From the NCBI GenBank assembly GCA_937922675.1, contig CALAJN010000014.1, positions 248,001-312,000 of the forward strand: a DNA stretch of 64,000 nucleotides, given 5' to 3'. The position numbers were made by a program, and so were the translations under genes. Of this stretch, positions 14,857-21,991 are shown in pieces; position 1 is the stretch's first letter; each line of letters begins with the position of its first letter. Origin of the DNA: an uncultured Granulosicoccaceae bacterium. Lineage in GTDB: Bacteria; Pseudomonadota; Gammaproteobacteria; Granulosicoccales; Granulosicoccaceae. The notes under the pieces were generated by a model that worked only from the letters and a program-made list of their open reading frames with translations, was not told where the DNA came from and searched no databases.

Positions 14857-16305
14857 TTAGCCGACCCTGCCCATACCAAAAGCCATCGGATCGTCTTCGT
14901 CCTCGCCGGGCTCTGGCTCCGGGTCAGGTTCCAAAGACAGTTCGAGGGCACCTGCGCTTGCACTGCCTTCCTTGGCAGCCTGAATAGCGGCGAGTTTTTC
15001 CTTCGCCTGTGCTAGTCGTTCAGCAGCATCATTGTCAGTAGACTCCGATTCATCGTTTGCTGATGTGCTGCCTGCGAGTTGCGCCTCCATTGCCGCGTGG
15101 ATGTTGGTCACGGGATTATCCGCATCTTCAGAGCTCCCTGACTCCGGTGCTTCATCGTCTGCCTTGGCGGCTGCCGCGTTGCCAGGTAACTGTCCGCGTA
15201 GCAGCAAATCACTCTGGTCTTCCTCTTGAGAGGGTGATGAGAGTTTGAAGCGCAGGCGCAGGTTGTTAGCAGAATCTGCGTTTTTCAGCGCTTCGTCCTT
15301 GGTAATTCTGCCCTCCATGGCCAGCTCGAACAGGGCGCTGTCGAAGGTCTTCATGCCCATGTTCTCTGATTTTTGCATTGTCTCCTTGATGTCGTCCAAT
15401 TGACCCTTCATGATCATCTGTTTGATGGTATGAGAGCCGAGTAATATCTCGATAGCAGCACAGCGTTTACCGTCTACAGTGGGTATCAGTCTTTGCGAAA
15501 CGATGGCGCGAATGTTGTTGCCGAGGTCGTGCAGCAGTTGCGCCTTGCGCTCGTCAGGGAAGAAATTGATGATGCGATCGATAGCCTGATTGGCGTTGTT
15601 GGCGTGCAGTGTGGATATTGCCAAGTGACCTGTTTCAGCAAAGGCTACTGCGTGCTCCATCGTTTCACGATCACGAATTTCCCCAATTAAAATGACGTCG
15701 GGTGCCTGTCGTAGGGTGTTCTTCAAGGCAGCATGAAAGCTGTTGGTATCAACGCCAACTTCTCGCTGATTGACAATACATTTTTTGTGTGGATGGACGT
15801 ACTCAACTGGATCCTCGATGGTGATGATGTGGCCGCCTTTCCACATGTTGCGATGATCAATCAAGGCCGCAAGCGAGGTTGACTTTCCAGAGCCTGTGCC
15901 ACCGACAAACAGCACCAGGCCGTTCTTTGACTGGATGACTTCCTTCAACACATCGGGAAGACCGAGGTCATCAAAGCGAGGGATCTCGGTCTGAATGTTC
16001 CGCGCAACAAGCGAGACTTCATTGCGCTGCCGGAATATGTTGAGTCGAAATCGCCCGATACCCTCTGGTGAAATCGCAAGATTCATTTCGCTCTCGCGCT
16101 CGAACTCCTCGCGTTGGTCATCATTCATGACTTCGTCAGCCATGGCTGCAACGTCACCGTGTTCCAGATTTCGATCAGACAGAGCTGTGAGCTCCCCCGC
16201 GAACTTGGCGCTCGGAGGCGCGCCAGTAGAGAGATAGAGATCAGACCCATCAAAGTCCACAAGGCGCTTCAGTAGCGCCATTAATTCTGGTCTTCCTTCG
16301 CTCAC
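14857..16305 (-). CDS. pilU: Type IV pilus retraction ATPase, PilU type, with acidic C-terminal tail
   Basis: Hexameric cytoplasmic motor ATPase that assists PilT in pilus retraction. Motifs in order are FDGSDLYLSTGAPPS, Walker A GGTGSGKST, the Asp box ITIEDPVEYVH, Walker B VILIGEIRD and the His box HLAISTLHANN. The end of the core, DEALKNADSANNLRLRFKL, is PilU-like. The usual length is about 380 residues; here about 120 more follow, rich in Asp, Glu, Ala and Ser with a run of alternating Pro-Glu/Asp and ending in MAFGMGRVG. Start options are GTG 16305 (with GAGGA six to ten bases upstream, chosen), TTG 16323 and ATG 16281. It lies 65 bases after pilY1 on the same strand. Confidence 0.92.
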   Translation of the reverse strand: MSEGRPELMALLKRLVDFDGSDLYLSTGAPPSAKFAGELTALSDRNLEHGDVAAMADEVMNDDQREEFERESEMNLAISPEGIGRFRLNIFRQRNEVSLVARNIQTEIPRFDDLGLPDVLKEVIQSKNGLVLFVGGTGSGKSTSLAALIDHRNMWKGGHIITIEDPVEYVHPHKKCIVNQREVGVDTNSFHAALKNTLRQAPDVILIGEIRDRETMEHAVAFAETGHLAISTLHANNANQAIDRIINFFPDERKAQLLHDLGNNIRAIVSQRLIPTVDGKRCAAIEILLGSHTIKQMIMKGQLDDIKETMQKSENMGMKTFDSALFELAMEGRITKDEALKNADSANNLRLRFKLSSPSQEEDQSDLLLRGQLPGNAAAAKADDEAPESGSSEDADNPVTNIHAAMEAQLAGSTSANDESESTDNDAAERLAQAKEKLAAIQAAKEGSASAGALELSLEPDPEPEPGEDEDDPMAFGMGRVG

Positions 16306-16369
16306 AGACAATTCCTCGTTCAATTACGTGATCCTGAGGTTATCGACGCTTCAGGCGTACTCTTCAAGA

Positions 16370-19300
16370 CTACTTTGCGTGCCAGTAAATCCTTGAGAGC
16401 TGTGTCTCGACCTCATTCACGGGTTCCAGTCCGACGTAGATCTGTGTTCTTTCGCCTCCCTGTGGAAAGACAATAACCGGACTTGCAAGTATGCCTGCCG
16501 TAGGCATGTTCTTATAGCGTGATTGATTCGTGTCCGGACTGTCGATGTCGGCAAGTGCGCCGGTAGGTACAGCTGAACGAATGTCCAGCTGATAGTAGCG
16601 ACCGATATGCTCTACATTACAGGCGAGCGCACCTACCGCTTCCACAGGTTCAAACGTTGTCGCCAGCAAGTTGCCTTCAAAGGTCACCAGACGAGACAGA
16701 GATTTCTCGCCCGGTGCCAAATCAAGATACCAACCTTGCGCCGCAGCGAGTTCTGCCCGTGCATTGGCAGCTACAGTTTCATCAGTAGATTCAACCAGAT
16801 TATCGGTCACATTGTAGAGTTCGTCAGGTTGGATCAAGTCTACAGATCCAGGTAGATTGTTATATCCGTTGGAATCCTTTAGTACCCACAACCTGTTTTC
16901 TGAAGTGCTATTCATCGGGTCAGTGCGATCACCCGATCCGAGCGCTACGTATAGAAAATCATCAGCAGTATTGGTGCTAAGAGAAATGCTGGGTGAATAG
17001 AAGAAGGGCTGATGGCTACCGTTTGAAAGAGTAGCGATACGCGAGACTGAGTAGTCACTGTCTTTTCGCATATCGTTGAAATCAACACGCCAGACCTGTC
17101 CTCCCAGATCCCCCACATAGAGACGATCAGCGAACCCATCTCCGTTGCTGTCTATGACAGTTGGGTCAGCAGCGATGGCATATTGCATGTTGGCATCATT
17201 GCGCTCATCTGCTGTCCACACCAGGTTTCCATCGATATCGACGACATACAGGGCGTTGCCCTGTTTGGCAGGCGTCGGTACTGTGGTGTTATCTAGTGTA
17301 TTTGAGTCATAACCACCTGAGAACACCAGAAAATATTCATCAGTGGTTCCGCTGCGGCCTTGAACCAGCGCCATCTTGGACCACGTCTCGCCCAATGATT
17401 CAAAGCCTGTGGTTGTTGGGTCAATGGTCCATTCCAAAGACGGCTTTTCATAGTCAGTGACATCTAGGGCGTAGTAGCTATCGCCGCCGCGGCGCATACC
17501 GATGACCAACAATAGTCTGTCGTTGCCGTTTACTACGCCATCACCGTTGTCGTCGGTATGGACGCGCGTGATACCACCGTCAAGACCATAGATATGATCA
17601 TAAGTGCTTGCGTTGTTCATCAATGCTGGCAGGTTTTTGAGCAAGCGCTCTGGCATAAACGCAAAAATCTCCTCACCACCCGAGATATCGGGCGTACCCG
17701 TGGCACTGACCGGTTTGCTCGCGTCTATAGCGTGCAGAAATCCCTGATTGGTCATCGTATAGAGGACGCGACGATCTCCATAGTCAACCGTCACGGGCTT
17801 GGAGTGCAAAGAGTCACCCATGGACGCTGTTTGAATCCAGTCGAGCGCTATCGCTGTCTGTGCAGAGCCAGCAGGCAAGCCAAGGTGAGCATCAGTGATG
17901 CTTGTATTGTCGTTGGAGAGACGACTTTCTGTGCCTTTGGAAAGTTCTCGACTACCACCGGTGTAGGCAAGGGCGGTATATAGGTTACGTTCAGTTGCTG
18001 GCTCACTCAATTGCTCGGATGCACCACCTTCGTTGACTTTGTTTCCATCGATCGTGCTTGACCAGAAGCTTTGGATGTCGTCAGCGAAGGCAGTACCTCC
18101 TTCGTTAGCGACATCGTTTCCGTTTAAGTCCTCAAGTCCATTAGCGGTCAGGAAATAGCCCTTGGTGTTGCCATCCCATGCAGCACCTGCACTGGGTTTG
18201 AACAAACTGAAATACGCGCGATCAGCGTGCGAAAAGCTAGCGCGATCAACATCTATCGAAAGTTCGGTGAAGGTTTCACTGTCATCCTTGATAGATTCAA
18301 CCAGCTCGCTGAACGCAGCGGTTAGTTCCTCAATATCGTTCGCAGTGCGGTTAAAGCCGCCTCCCGCTGTGGCGATGCGCTCAAGATATGCCTCTGCGTC
18401 ATCGCTTGCAGCAAAGCCAACGGTGTAGGTCTTGACGGTACTTTCCGGAATTTCCGGGACTTGAGGGTTGTTGGCCAGAATAGCCGCAATCTCGGGTCCA
18501 CAGTTGCCCTGATTGGTGGTGCCTCGGGTGTTGGCAAAGACGCTCCCGGACAGATCCTCACAGTCGGAGATATCTCCTTCGAGGACCTCGCTCAGAGCCT
18601 CGGTTTCTCGAATCCTGGTGGGCACTCCATCGGAGACGAGAACGATGGCATTGACCGCACACTGCCCTGTGATAGGGGACACATAGTTGGCGCCCTCCCA
18701 TAGATCACTTGATTGAAACTCGCACTGGCGTACAAGGACGTAGCGGCGGCCTGTTCCGTCCTCTGGAAAATTATTGCCACGCACGAGCCTGCATGTGTTG
18801 ATGCGATCAGCCTCAAAGGGCTGGCAGTTGTTTACTGTGCCGCCGTAGGGTGTGTAGTCATAGCAGTAACTGAATTGCTCACCGAGGGGTTGGTTGCGCT
18901 TGAATGCCTCTTTTGGCTGGTATGAGCTCGGTATGGCTGCCAGGGCATTACCTCCTGTGTAGCGCTGGGTAACAGGGTCCCAGACGTCAGGCTCGTTTCT
19001 TTCAGACCACAAGGGAGAAATGTCGCCGTTTGCGACGCGACCACCGCGAAAGTACAAGGCGGCCTCTGCAAGCGCGTTTACGGTAGCGGTTGATCCTGAT
19101 GCCGGGATTCTATCCAGCTGGCTGGCGATGACGTCCCTGTTGGTTATGCCCGGGCCTATGGCAGGGTCAAGATCGCTGGCATCACCCAGAGGGTCTGATA
19201 TTGGCCATCGAACACCCGATGGCCAGAGACCGTATGTTGAGCCAATGCCTGCGTTGATATCCTCTTCGTTTTCCTCGAGTACATCCAGCACCGCGCGCTT

Positions 19301-19555
19301 GAGGATCGTGAGCCTTGAGTCTTTGCCTCGTGCCGGCGGCAGCTTGCCATTGACGTCACGATTCATGCTGCCCGAATAATCCAGCACAAACAGAATGTTA
19401 GGCTTCTGTTGGGCCTCGATGCGAGCACGATAAACGTCCAGATCATCGGCGCTTGCTGGTACCGCAACGGCGGAAGTGGCAAGAGCTGCGAACAGAGCGA
19501 CGCTTAGTGAGCCTCCTGTTCCGGCATTGGTGCAACGTGTAACAATCGAGTTCAT
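16370..19555 (-). CDS. pilY1: PilY1-like type IV pilus tip adhesin
   Basis: Exported protein of about 1,061 residues that caps and primes type IV pili and mediates surface sensing. The signal sequence runs to PASA near residue 36. A von Willebrand A domain follows, with the MIDAS motif DYSGS at residues 59-63. The C-terminal half is a PilC/PilY beta-propeller (LLLVIGMRRGGDSYYALDVTD, MALVQGR, YVGDLGGQVWRVDF) with calcium loops DDNGDGVVNGND and DSNGDGFAD. The ribosome site GGAGGAG (19569-19575) is 13 bases from ATG 19555 but 7 and 4 bases from two in-frame TTG codons (19561, 19564), so the start is not certain. The minor pilin genes that usually accompany pilY1 are missing; its partner here is pilU. 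Confidence 0.92.
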   Translation of the reverse strand: MNSIVTRCTNAGTGGSLSVALFAALATSAVAVPASADDLDVYRARIEAQQKPNILFVLDYSGSMNRDVNGKLPPARGKDSRLTILKRAVLDVLEENEEDINAGIGSTYGLWPSGVRWPISDPLGDASDLDPAIGPGITNRDVIASQLDRIPASGSTATVNALAEAALYFRGGRVANGDISPLWSERNEPDVWDPVTQRYTGGNALAAIPSSYQPKEAFKRNQPLGEQFSYCYDYTPYGGTVNNCQPFEADRINTCRLVRGNNFPEDGTGRRYVLVRQCEFQSSDLWEGANYVSPITGQCAVNAIVLVSDGVPTRIRETEALSEVLEGDISDCEDLSGSVFANTRGTTNQGNCGPEIAAILANNPQVPEIPESTVKTYTVGFAASDDAEAYLERIATAGGGFNRTANDIEELTAAFSELVESIKDDSETFTELSIDVDRASFSHADRAYFSLFKPSAGAAWDGNTKGYFLTANGLEDLNGNDVANEGGTAFADDIQSFWSSTIDGNKVNEGGASEQLSEPATERNLYTALAYTGGSRELSKGTESRLSNDNTSITDAHLGLPAGSAQTAIALDWIQTASMGDSLHSKPVTVDYGDRRVLYTMTNQGFLHAIDASKPVSATGTPDISGGEEIFAFMPERLLKNLPALMNNASTYDHIYGLDGGITRVHTDDNGDGVVNGNDRLLLVIGMRRGGDSYYALDVTDYEKPSLEWTIDPTTTGFESLGETWSKMALVQGRSGTTDEYFLVFSGGYDSNTLDNTTVPTPAKQGNALYVVDIDGNLVWTADERNDANMQYAIAADPTVIDSNGDGFADRLYVGDLGGQVWRVDFNDMRKDSDYSVSRIATLSNGSHQPFFYSPSISLSTNTADDFLYVALGSGDRTDPMNSTSENRLWVLKDSNGYNNLPGSVDLIQPDELYNVTDNLVESTDETVAANARAELAAAQGWYLDLAPGEKSLSRLVTFEGNLLATTFEPVEAVGALACNVEHIGRYYQLDIRSAVPTGALADIDSPDTNQSRYKNMPTAGILASPVIVFPQGGERTQIYVGLEPVNEVETQLSRIYWHAK

Positions 19556-19699
19556 GGGCAACAATTGGCTCCTCCAACCGGAGAATGGGAATAGGCGAGG
19601 GCGAGGCCTATCCGGAGATCATGTACACAGCTCCTCAGAGGGCATAGCGGCAAGTAGATTGCGTAACTTGAATTCGAAGGTGTGGGAGAGTCTCGTCAA

Positions 19700-21088
19700 G
19701 TGATCAGGAGCGTATACAACCACCTTTTTGCGCCAGTGGACGCAGCTTTTCTAGCTGTATTCCGGATCATGTTTGGTGCCACCCTCCTGTTTGAGGCAAT
19801 CAACTACGGCGTCTTCCTGTGTCTCGACTGTCTGTATCGAGAGCCTGATTTTCTGTTCAAGTACCACCACTTCGAGTGGGTAGGCGTACTGCCAGGGCCA
19901 GGCCTTGAACTGGTGTTTGTGGCGATGGGCGTCGCGGCTCTGGGAGTCATGCTCGGCTACTTTTACAGGCTCAGCGCTCTTGTGCTGGTGATCAGCTTTG
20001 CCTATCTTTTCTTTCTGGATCAGGCGTTGTATCTGAATCACTTCTACCTCGTCTTGCTCTTTGCCACGATCCTTGTTTTCTTGCCCGCCAACCGATTGTG
20101 GTCTATCGATGCGCGGCGTCGGCCGGCCCTGAGGTCTGAAACTGTGCCAGCCTGGAGTCGCTGGTGGCTGGTTCTGCAGCTCGAAATAGTGCTCCTGTAT
20201 GCCGGCCTGGTGAAGTTGACACCGGACTGGTTGCAGCTTGAGCCCATGCGCCTGTGGATGAACTCACAAAGTCAACAGGCAGCTCCAGTATTTCAGTGGT
20301 TGACTCAAGACTGGGGTATCGCAGTGGCAAGTTATGGCGCAATCGCTTTGCACCTTCTGGGCGCCCCACTTTTATTGTTCAAACGCACCAGGCTCCTTGT
20401 CTTTTGCGTTTATGCGGTTTTCCACCTGACCAACTCTTTGGTCTTCAATATCGGAATTTTTCCGTGGGTGACTATTGCAGCTACATTGGTGCTCTTCGAT
20501 CCGGGGTGGCCGCGTCAATTTCTGGCTTTTTTGCAGGCGCGAGGGCGAGCATTGCGATGGAGTCATCTAGCGGAGCCGCCTTGCTTGCCAGCGCAAACAG
20601 ATACGGGGAAGACAGCGACCCGATTTATCGTGCTGACTGTGATCGGTGTTTGGCTGTGTGTGCAAATAGCCGTACCACTACGACATTACTTTCGTCCTGG
20701 AAATGTAGCGTGGAATGAGGACGGGCATCGTTTCAGCTGGCGTATGAAGCTGCGTAGCAAGCGCGGCACAACACAGTTTTATGTCAAGTTTGATGATGGC
20801 AGTTTCATCGATATTGATTCAAGCGAGCATCTCACGCGAAAGCAGGAGAAGAAAATGTCCTGCATCCCGGATCTCATCTGGCAGTACGCCCAGTTCATCG
20901 AAGATGAGTACCGACGATCTCCGACCGATGATCCAGCCGTACACGTCATTTCACGATGCTCACTCAATACACGAGAAGCGGTGCCACTAGTGAGTGAGCT
21001 TGTGGACTTGACGAGTATCAGTAGAGCTGAGCCCACAAGCAATTGGGTGTTACCCAACACCAAGTCAATGCCACACAGGATTTTTTGA
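19700..21088 (+). CDS. HTTM-domain protein, vitamin K-dependent gamma-glutamyl carboxylase homologue
   Basis: Polytopic membrane protein of about 462 residues. From what I recall of human GGCX, several blocks align: GYFYRLSALVLVISFAYLFF, LNHFYLVLLFA, LPANRLWSID, LLYAGLVKLTPDWL, FHLTNSLVFNIGIFPWVTIA and HRFSWRMKLRSK. His114 and Lys172 (in the two blocks LNHFYL and GLVKL) are 58 residues apart, the same spacing as the essential His160 and Lys218 of GGCX. The C-terminal third is extracytoplasmic, resembling the start of the carboxylase lumenal domain, but stops much earlier. GTG 19700 is preceded by GGGAGAG; an upstream GTG at 19682 is possible. It is divergent from pilY1 across a 144-base promoter region. 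Family is likely; carboxylase, epoxidase or another function is unproven. Confidence 0.82.
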   Translation: MIRSVYNHLFAPVDAAFLAVFRIMFGATLLFEAINYGVFLCLDCLYREPDFLFKYHHFEWVGVLPGPGLELVFVAMGVAALGVMLGYFYRLSALVLVISFAYLFFLDQALYLNHFYLVLLFATILVFLPANRLWSIDARRRPALRSETVPAWSRWWLVLQLEIVLLYAGLVKLTPDWLQLEPMRLWMNSQSQQAAPVFQWLTQDWGIAVASYGAIALHLLGAPLLLFKRTRLLVFCVYAVFHLTNSLVFNIGIFPWVTIAATLVLFDPGWPRQFLAFLQARGRALRWSHLAEPPCLPAQTDTGKTATRFIVLTVIGVWLCVQIAVPLRHYFRPGNVAWNEDGHRFSWRMKLRSKRGTTQFYVKFDDGSFIDIDSSEHLTRKQEKKMSCIPDLIWQYAQFIEDEYRRSPTDDPAVHVISRCSLNTREAVPLVSELVDLTSISRAEPTSNWVLPNTKSMPHRIF

Positions 21089-21103: not shown

Positions 21104-21991
21104 GTGTTAGCGCTAGCCAGTCAGATCATAGGCATTCTGGCGCCGGGTTTTTTTCTTGCGATGATCGGACTTGTCTGGCAGCGACGCGGTTTGGCGTTCC
21201 CGCTGGATTTTGTGACCAGTCTGGTAATCAACGTGAGTATGCCGGCGTTACTTTTTCATACCTTGGTGCTTATCGAAACCCCCGTGACTTCTCTGGGTAA
21301 GATCGCGGTAGCTACAGTGGCTGTACATGTGGTGTTTGCACCATTAGCGATAGGTTTGCTGTTGAAGGCCGGCTCAGATTGGCGTTTGAGCGTCGCTCAC
21401 GTAGTGGGCAATACAGGAAATCTGGGGTTGCCTGTCTGCTATTTCGCGTTCGGTGACACGGGCCTTGCTTATGCGATGACTTTTTTTGCGGTTCAGTGCT
21501 TGCTGCTGTTTACCATTGGTGAGGCGGTGTATGCCGGGCGTATCAACCTTACTCGTGTGATTCGCTCTCCTATCCTGATTTCGATCGTACTGGCGTTTTT
21601 CGCTCGGAGTCTTGAGGTTAACTTGCCGGTGTTTGCCCAGGAGACGCTCGTGCTGCTTGGGCAGATCGCCATTCCCTTGATGCTGATTACGCTGGGTGTC
21701 AGTCTAGGCTCGATGCGCGCAGCTTCCCTTCCATCAACAGTAGTATGGTCTGTAGTTCGTACTGGAGTTGCAATATGCGTAGGTTTTGGTGTAGCTCATG
21801 TGCTGGCGCTTGAAGGTGCGGCACGGGGCGTTGTAGTCATCGAGACCGTCGTACCGGTGGCGGTGTTCAACTTCCTACTTGCTGTCAAACATTCTCGCGA
21901 CAGTGAGACAGTGGCAGGCCTTGTCCTTGTGACGCACCTGGGCGCAATAGTCTATCTGCCCATTGTGTTGGGTATCCTGTTAGCGACCTAG
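21104..21991 (+). CDS. AEC family transporter
   Basis: Inner-membrane carrier of 295 residues in the auxin efflux carrier family (bile/arsenite/riboflavin transporter superfamily). It has ten hydrophobic segments in two halves, and the crossover motifs are seen as GNTGNLGLPVCYFAFGDTGLAYAM near residue 110 and IPLMLITLGVSLGSM near 205. Bacterial members commonly carry malate or malonate, but some are uncharacterised. The start is GTG at 21104, 15 bases after the carboxylase-like gene, so the two may be co-transcribed. Confidence 0.88.
   Translation: MLALASQIIGILAPGFFLAMIGLVWQRRGLAFPLDFVTSLVINVSMPALLFHTLVLIETPVTSLGKIAVATVAVHVVFAPLAIGLLLKAGSDWRLSVAHVVGNTGNLGLPVCYFAFGDTGLAYAMTFFAVQCLLLFTIGEAVYAGRINLTRVIRSPILISIVLAFFARSLEVNLPVFAQETLVLLGQIAIPLMLITLGVSLGSMRAASLPSTVVWSVVRTGVAICVGFGVAHVLALEGAARGVVVIETVVPVAVFNFLLAVKHSRDSETVAGLVLVTHLGAIVYLPIVLGILLAT

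What the first reader, a model, noticed from the sequence alone, without database searches (positions are those of the whole stretch)
19700..21088. Bacterial homologue of vitamin K-dependent gamma-glutamyl carboxylase with catalytic residues kept
The membrane core aligns block by block with what I recall of human GGCX, and the probable His160 and Lys218 equivalents (His114 and Lys172) keep the 58-residue spacing. The gene is divergent from pilY1, a calcium-binding exported protein. Gamma-carboxyglutamate binds calcium, so an exported protein with calcium loops is a plausible, unproven substrate. The protein lacks most of the lumenal domain, so it may instead be an epoxidase or quinone-modifying enzyme.
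Basis: partly seen in the sequence, partly recalled or inferred. Interest (0 to 1): 0.65.

Follow-up and report, generated by a model that had tools for sequence, protein, structure and literature searches.

The report
Bacterial relative of vitamin K carboxylase
A marine bacterium carries a close structural relative of the human enzyme that uses vitamin K to activate blood-clotting proteins, with its active site kept although the bacterium appears unable to make vitamin K, so it may run the same chemistry on a different quinone and an unknown target.

Summary
Window 19700-21088 (+) encodes a 462-aa protein with a full HTTM domain and a nearly full Pfam VKGC lumenal domain. It aligns with human GGCX 54-504 at 27% identity. 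A confident model (pLDDT 95) superposes on GGCX (Z 36, 3.1 A over 443 residues). Lys172 = Lys218, His114 = His160, Asn113 = Asn159, and the hydroquinone ring pocket is kept. Bacterial members of this family are already known, so membership is not new.

New here: (1) bacterial relatives split into two groups; clade II sits in imelysin/TonB-receptor loci, the window enzyme is in clade I. (2) The host (Granulosicoccaceae) shows no VKOR or MqnA match and no MenD above cut-off, but has UbiA, so it looks ubiquinone-only; MenD above cut-off and MqnA are each found in 0 of 40 family genomes. (3) Clade I genes adjoin a DCC-type thiol-disulfide oxidoreductase in 17 of 65 loci, clade II in 0 of 38; the window locus does not, but its genome has an unlinked homologue and an HTTM-DCC fusion.

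I read it as a carboxylase-type hydroquinone oxygenase, perhaps using ubiquinol, substrate unknown. PilY1 as substrate is weak: the linkage is confined to one family and PilY1's conserved acids are mostly Asp. Cofactor, product and substrate are untested.

The parts
19700..21088 (+). VKGC-type membrane enzyme gene (462 aa; alternative GTG start at 19682)
19727..20509 (+). HTTM domain (residues 10-270)
   Evidence: Pfam PF05090, 3e-80
20627..21061 (+). VKGC lumenal domain (residues 310-454), equivalent to the first part of the human lumenal region
   Evidence: Pfam PF22777, 6.9e-37, profile 4-150 of 152
20036..20041 (+). Asn113-His114 codons, equivalent to human Asn159-His160 (Glu-binding)
   Evidence: N and H in 106 of 106 sequences with letters there, search patterns favoured them
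20213..20215 (+). Lys172 codon, equivalent to human Lys218 (catalytic base)
   Evidence: K in 107 of 107 sequences with letters there, search patterns favoured it
20327..20353 (+). Residues 210-218, overlapping the wall of the quinone tail tunnel in human GGCX; Ala210, Ala214 and His218 differ from most relatives in other phyla
21104..21991 (+). AEC-type permease (Mem_trans), 15 bases downstream and possibly co-transcribed; at +1 or +2 in 11 of 24 family loci
16370..19564 (-). Divergent PilY1-like exported protein with vWA-like N-terminus (DYSGSM, by eye) and an Asp-based loop; neighbour, not shown to be a substrate
14857..16323 (-). PilT/PilU-family ATPase, downstream of the PilY1-like gene

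Best explanation
It is a bacterial member of the vitamin K-dependent gamma-carboxylase (VKGC) family in the inner membrane, with the active site facing the periplasm. Lys172 deprotonates a bound hydroquinone; O2 turns it into a strong alkoxide base; this takes a proton from a carboxylate-bearing substrate held by Asn113/His114 (and probably His343), and CO2 adds to the carbanion, leaving a quinone epoxide-type product. Because the host appears to make only ubiquinone, the hydroquinone is more likely ubiquinol than vitamin K. A DCC-type thiol-disulfide protein may recycle the oxidised quinone in place of VKOR. The substrate is unknown and is recognised without the human-type C-terminal propeptide lobe. 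Shown here: family, predicted fold, residues, absence of the menaquinone and VKOR markers that were searched, DCC adjacency in clade I relatives. Inferred: the reaction, the cofactor, the role of DCC, the membrane sidedness, substrate recognition.
For: Both Pfam domains. 27% identity to human GGCX over human 54-504. Model of pLDDT 95.2, pTM 0.92; Z 36.0, 3.1 A over 443 residues against GGCX 9wfc, next unrelated chain Z 7.4; Foldseek TM (query-normalised) up to 0.85. Residues that hold the hydroquinone ring in human GGCX (Val210, Trp223, Phe286, Phe294, Phe299, Met401, His160; PMC12589487) are all identical here; Phe286 and Phe299 are invariant in 108 of 108 sequences and were not part of the search patterns. 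Own genome: UbiA over its cut-off, its two other UbiA-like proteins being haem o synthase and (bacterio)chlorophyll synthase, not MenA; no VKOR match, no MqnA match, no MenD over cut-off. Family: MenD 0 of 40 over cut-off, MqnA 0 of 40. DCC-motif protein adjacent in 17 of 65 clade I loci, 17 of 125 immediate neighbours versus 0 of 495 genes two to six away, p = 6e-13; Pfam PF04134 over cut-off in all 16 of the 17 that were scanned. DCC proteins, fusions included, are found in 25 of 25 family genomes with the enzyme and 7 of 11 without (p = 0.006; in genomes at least 90% complete 17 of 17 versus 5 of 6, p = 0.26).
Against: No activity, cofactor or product of this clade was reported in what I read. 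The human coupling residues Lys217, Tyr379, His404 and the disulfide Cys99-Cys450 are absent; Tyr395 is His, Met402 is Lys. The window locus itself has no DCC neighbour, and only 2 of 24 family loci do. The four clade II paralogues in the same ubiquinone-only family keep Tyr165, Ala171, Asp218 and a bulky residue at 210, as in other phyla, so the pocket follows ancestry rather than host quinone. That the other phyla use menaquinone is recalled; MenD was over cut-off in only 10 of 18 of those sampled. Menaquinone could be taken up from neighbours.
Confidence: 0.5

Rival explanations
1. It is a quinone epoxidase or oxygenase without carboxylation: the hydroquinone half-reaction is kept but no CO2 is fixed, as I recall was reported for the Leptospira homologue (Rishavy 2005, recalled, not read).
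For: Glu-pocket positions Tyr395 and Met402 are changed to His343 and Lys350; the ring pocket and base are kept; the C-terminal part of the propeptide-binding region is missing.
Against: Asn113 and His114, which touch the Glu side chain in human GGCX, are in all 106 sequences with letters there, though the search patterns favoured them. An orthologue is reported to take part in antibiotic biosynthesis (title of Law 2018 seen in a reference list; that it carboxylates and is actinobacterial is recalled).
Confidence: 0.25
2. It is a classical protein gamma-carboxylase that makes gamma-carboxyglutamate in PilY1, using menaquinone taken up from outside.
For: Divergent pilY1 neighbour kept in 12 of 24 Granulosicoccaceae loci; PilY1 has a signal-like N-terminus by eye and, in 8 of 14 copies, a loop of calcium-binding type.
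Against: Linkage confined to one family, 0 of 41 other clade I loci; weak co-occurrence; conserved acids are 23 Asp and 3 Glu; no menaquinone markers at cut-off, no VKOR.
Confidence: 0.08
3. It carboxylates a small molecule or free amino acid, whose product is moved by the downstream AEC-family permease.
For: The AEC permease starts 15 bases after the stop codon and follows at +1 or +2 in 11 of 24 family loci; no C-terminal propeptide lobe; AEC permeases include carboxylate carriers (recalled).
Against: No member of that permease cluster lies within six genes of the clade I loci outside Granulosicoccaceae; 10 of the 11 loci also share the PilY1 neighbour, so the order may only be inherited; in three loci a small PepSY_2 protein lies between the two genes and is as good a candidate.
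Confidence: 0.15

Closest known systems
[quoted passage not shown]
   Same: Fold, HTTM core, first lumenal domain, Lys218, Asn159, His160 and the ring pocket
   Different: No human-type region after about residue 504, no Lys217, no Cys99-Cys450 disulfide; host without a VKOR or MqnA match or MenD above cut-off
Clade II bacterial VKGC proteins (Bacteroidota, Myxococcota); the Fur-listed Riemerella protein RAYM_09784 fits by its neighbours only
   Same: Catalytic residues kept
   Different: Imelysin at -1 in 33 of 38 loci and TonB-receptor-like gene at +1 in 25 of 38; Thr245, Val349, Met350 instead of Asn, Met, Lys; about 32-39% identical to the window protein
Leptospira VKGC homologue (recalled; mentioned in PMC4555120)
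   Same: Bacterial VKGC homologue
   Different: Not compared by sequence here; its genome is said to hold a VKOR homologue
VKGC orthologue of antibiotic biosynthesis (Law 2018, title only)
   Same: VKGC orthologue in a bacterium (recalled)
   Different: Lies in a biosynthetic cluster (recalled); not compared by sequence here
HTTM-DCC fusion proteins (own genome, C4, 647 aa)
   Same: HTTM domain; DCC domain matches the adjacent-gene pairing
   Different: HTTM score far lower (37.8 bits), no VKGC lumenal domain found

Membership tests
VKGC family (HTTM + VKGC lumenal domain) | Complete HTTM domain | tested here: met
   270 bits, profile 1-259 of 259
VKGC family (HTTM + VKGC lumenal domain) | VKGC lumenal domain | tested here: met
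   127 bits, profile 4-150 of 152
VKGC family (HTTM + VKGC lumenal domain) | Catalytic base Lys218 and Glu-binding Asn159/His160 | tested here: met
   Lys172, Asn113, His114
VKGC family (HTTM + VKGC lumenal domain) | Hydroquinone ring pocket | tested here: met
   Val210, Trp223, Phe286, Phe294, Phe299, Met401 all identical
VKGC family (HTTM + VKGC lumenal domain) | GGCX fold | tested here: met
   Z 36.0, 3.1 A over 443 residues, predicted model
VKGC family (HTTM + VKGC lumenal domain) | Hydroquinone-dependent carboxylation | not testable with these tools
   needs an assay
Animal-type protein gamma-carboxylase (GGCX in the strict sense) | C-terminal part of the propeptide-binding lumenal region | tested here: not met
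   protein ends at the equivalent of about human 504-518; propeptide contact Tyr425 is Ser374
Animal-type protein gamma-carboxylase (GGCX in the strict sense) | Lys217 and Cys99-Cys450 | tested here: not met
   Val171; Phe53 and Phe399
Animal-type protein gamma-carboxylase (GGCX in the strict sense) | Vitamin K made in the host and recycled by VKOR | tested here: not met
   no VKOR match, no MqnA match, no MenD over cut-off, best 69.7 of 244.2 bits; uptake not testable
Animal-type protein gamma-carboxylase (GGCX in the strict sense) | Gla-containing target proteins | not testable with these tools
   needs mass spectrometry
Clade II imelysin-linked VKGC | Imelysin at -1 and Thr245/Val349/Met350 | tested here: not met
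   neighbours PilY1-like and AEC; residues Asn245, Met349, Lys350

The most novel reading that the evidence does not exclude
Clade I VKGC enzymes of Pseudomonadota run the vitamin K carboxylase reaction on ubiquinol, with a DCC thioredoxin-like protein as the recycling reductase: a ubiquinone cycle parallel to the animal vitamin K cycle, making a carboxylated product not yet known in these bacteria.
Probability: 0.25. Interest if true: 0.85.

Novelty: new variant of a known kind. Interest (0 to 1): 0.5.

Why it matters
Bacterial relatives of GGCX have been known for about two decades (recalled), yet what most of them do is open as far as I know. If these act on ubiquinol, the carboxylase superbase chemistry is not tied to vitamin K, and a parallel of the animal vitamin K cycle could be studied in simple bacteria. 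The split gives two separate, testable hypotheses: clade II with iron uptake (imelysin, TonB-receptor-like gene, Fur), clade I with a thiol oxidoreductase. The DCC pairing names a candidate redox partner where VKOR is absent.

Tried and rejected
PilY1 as substrate: rejected as main reading. PutA next to the enzyme in L044-L047 first looked like a large candidate substrate (up to 1317 aa) but reads as proline dehydrogenase/aldehyde dehydrogenase, recognised by eye, not by a profile. Pocket residues as proof of ubiquinol use: the differences at 165, 210, 214 and 218 are strong (214 is Gly in 0 of 51 Pseudomonadota clade I versus 46 of 48 in other phyla; 218 is His in 51 of 51 versus Asp in 48 of 48), but the Pseudomonadota form one side of a branch, so this is about one event, and the clade II paralogues in the same hosts mostly do not follow it. 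A promoter and terminator scan gave nothing above shuffles. Genome-wide DCC presence: 25 of 25 family genomes with the enzyme, 7 of 11 without, but three of the four lacking it are 63-80% complete and fusions are counted, so the adjacency carries the argument. The His114-Lys172 distance could not be measured. Papers: I saw listings only (at most 20 rows of up to 1,421 hits; one search had none) and noticed no paper on a DCC-VKGC pairing or a ubiquinone-using VKGC; the library is open-access only. Granulosicoccus quinone content was not found (one paper listed, not opened). Rows dropped: L071-L075, copies of genomes already counted (left out, kept in 51 and 53); L042 and L055 from the tree as fragments. 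Of 107 related loci, 76 and the window went into the second model's alignment. The tree is the quick method, with human GGCX on a very long branch. The DCC motif pattern allows only G, A or S after the D, so it misses variants such as the host's own YDKECPAC and is a lower bound.

Full report
OBSERVATION. The ORF at 19700-21088 (+) encodes 462 aa. Pfam finds HTTM over residues 10-270 (3e-80) and the VKGC lumenal domain over 310-454 (6.9e-37). A sequence search of the PDB returns 15 sequences up to E 10; the 8 named vitamin K-dependent gamma-carboxylase lie at 5.6e-36 or better, the other 7 at 0.15 or worse. The alignment covers human 54-504 with 118 identities in 442 aligned positions.

STRUCTURE. 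A first model on 23 sequences reached pLDDT 79; a second on 77 sequences reached pLDDT 95.2 and pTM 0.92. The second matches GGCX by Foldseek with TM up to 0.85 and by VIA-align with Z 36.0, 3.1 A over 443 residues, against Z 7.4 for the best unrelated chain.

ACTIVE SITE. The residue roles come from the human cryo-EM paper PMC12589487 (parts 1 and 2 of 3 of the text read). Kept: Asn159, His160, Val210, Ala214, Lys218, Asp222, Trp223, Val254, Gly258, Phe286, Asn290, Phe294, Phe299, Ser398, Met401, Arg476. Changed, among others: Asn158 to Leu112, Lys217 to Val171, Asp220 to Thr174, Glu230 to Arg184, Val255 to Ala210, Gly259 to Ala214, Tyr379 to Leu327, Tyr395 to His343, Met402 to Lys350, His404 to Arg352, Tyr425 to Ser374, Arg436 to Lys385, Cys99 and Cys450 to Phe. 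In that paper Lys218 is the base, while Lys217 is needed for substrate binding and not for catalysis. None of the 107 bacterial sequences with a letter at 217 has Lys there.

RELATIVES. Of 57 genomes (own plus related), 27 had a match; 25 of the 36 genomes of the same family carry the orthologue at 48% identity or more, some of them cut off at contig ends. In an even draw of 299 genomes of the phylum, 2 have the lumenal domain, the window's own being one. The patterns contain the NH and the K motif, so conservation of those residues there is partly by construction; Phe241, Phe254 and Trp347 were not in the patterns and are invariant wherever there is a letter.

TWO GROUPS. Taking Val at residue 349 as marker, 38 of 103 loci are clade II and the other 65 (the window included) are called clade I. 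In the tree the 38 clade II rows fall together (97%) and the Pseudomonadota clade I rows are one side of a branch (99%); six of the 65 (L095, L104, L106, L123, L141, L144) branch outside the main clade I group, so clade I in the wide sense is a remainder. Clade II has imelysin at -1 in 33 of 38, a TonB-receptor-like gene at +1 in 25 and DUF4856 at -2 in 25; the 65 others have 0 of each (the labels rest on the members scanned). A Fur regulation table of Riemerella lists a TonB-dependent receptor, a VKGC and an imelysin in a row (PMC5609570, one passage seen), which fits clade II. Four Granulosicoccaceae genomes hold a clade II paralogue beside imelysin-cluster genes (L056-L059).

DCC PAIRING. 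A short protein with a [FY]DGxCxxC-type motif lies immediately next to the enzyme in 17 of 65 clade I loci: 9 downstream on the same strand, 7 upstream and divergent, 1 upstream on the same strand. None of 495 genes two to six positions away has the motif (p = 6e-13; related genomes are not independent, so take this as an index). None of 360 neighbour genes of clade II has it. Pfam DCC1-like is over cut-off in the 16 of the 17 that were scanned; L109 was not scanned. Fifteen of the 17 are outside Granulosicoccaceae (15 of 41 loci there, 2 of 24 within the family), in alpha- and gammaproteobacteria and one Chloroflexota bin. The window locus has no such neighbour, but its genome has a homologue 45% identical to the one next to L051 and an HTTM-DCC fusion of 647 aa. 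In the family, DCC proteins (fusions included) occur in 25 of 25 genomes with the enzyme and 7 of 11 without, p = 0.006; with genomes at least 90% complete, 17 of 17 versus 5 of 6, p = 0.26. DCC proteins are thiol-disulfide oxidoreductases by annotation; a role in quinone recycling is my inference.

QUINONES. The genome (100% complete, 3.63 Mb) has UbiA above cut-off; the two other UbiA-like matches are haem o synthase and (bacterio)chlorophyll synthase. It has no VKOR match, no MqnA match and no MenD above cut-off (best 69.7 versus 244.2 bits). In the 14 control genomes these searches do ring over cut-off: VKOR in 3, MqnA in 4, MenD in 7. Across 40 family genomes (28 at least 90% complete), MenD is above cut-off in 0, with weaker matches in 40, and MqnA is found in 0. 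Of the genomes of 44 of the 80 other loci, MenD is above cut-off in 1 of 26 Pseudomonadota (Ferrimonas) and in 10 of 18 others (completeness unknown, MqnA not tested there). Thus the enzyme is carried by organisms that seem unable to make vitamin K. In Pseudomonadota clade I the quinone tail region differs: position 214 (human Gly259) is Gly in 0 of 51 versus 46 of 48 in other phyla; position 210 (human Val255) is Ala or Gly in 46 of 51 versus Phe, Met or Leu in 44 of 48; position 218 is His in 51 of 51 versus Asp in 48 of 48; position 165 is Leu in 45 of 51 versus Tyr in 47 of 48. This fits a different quinone, but it is one lineage. Of the four clade II paralogues in the same hosts, all keep Tyr165, Asp218 and a bulky 210, while three have Ala at 214. 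I give the ubiquinol reading about one in three, and the full ubiquinone-cycle reading one in four.

NEIGHBOURS IN THE WINDOW. A PilY1-like gene lies at -1 or -2 in 12 of 24 family loci and the PilT-like gene is near in 12, both in 11. In others the enzyme sits elsewhere, beside enolase and short-chain dehydrogenase genes, PutA, or gamma-glutamyltranspeptidase. That looks like inherited gene order rather than a functional pair. An AEC permease follows at +1 or +2 in 11 of 24 loci, 10 of which also have PilY1; in three a small PepSY_2 protein with a signal-like N-terminus lies between. Cytochrome b561 and YceI-domain proteins lie beside the enzyme in L044-L047; YceI proteins bind isoprenoid quinones as I recall.

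VERDICT. The finding is real and the family assignment firm. The protein is a VKGC-family member but not a GGCX in the strict animal sense. What is of interest is not the homology but the setting: a conserved vitamin K-type active site in a lineage without the searched markers of vitamin K synthesis or VKOR, and a thiol oxidoreductase pairing in its clade.

Noticed in passing
L068:5937-7877 (own genome, contig C4): A second HTTM protein of the host is an HTTM-DCC1-like fusion of 647 aa; DCC matches in similarly long open frames occur in many relatives.
   Followed up: partly
L066:2755-3690 (own genome, contig C4): A (bacterio)chlorophyll synthase-type gene over NCBIfam cut-off: the host may be a phototroph.
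   Followed up: no
L111-L150 (most), L056-L059: Clade II locus DUF4856 - imelysin - VKGC - TonB-receptor-like; Granulosicoccaceae paralogues sit with imelysin, di-haem oxidoreductase or DUF5122 genes.
   Followed up: partly
L034:10367-10663, L035:11383-11670, L050:11000-11374: A small PepSY_2 protein with a signal-like start and several Glu lies between the VKGC gene and the AEC permease; a possible substrate candidate (Pfam for L034 and L050).
   Followed up: partly
L044-L047: Cytochrome b561-YceI fusion and YceI genes beside the VKGC gene in four loci; one of each scanned.
   Followed up: no
L034 and L048: Two tandem copies of the PilY1-like gene beside the VKGC gene.
   Followed up: no
L115, L141: The VKGC frame is interrupted by stops within the matched stretch; not repaired or read through.
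   Followed up: no
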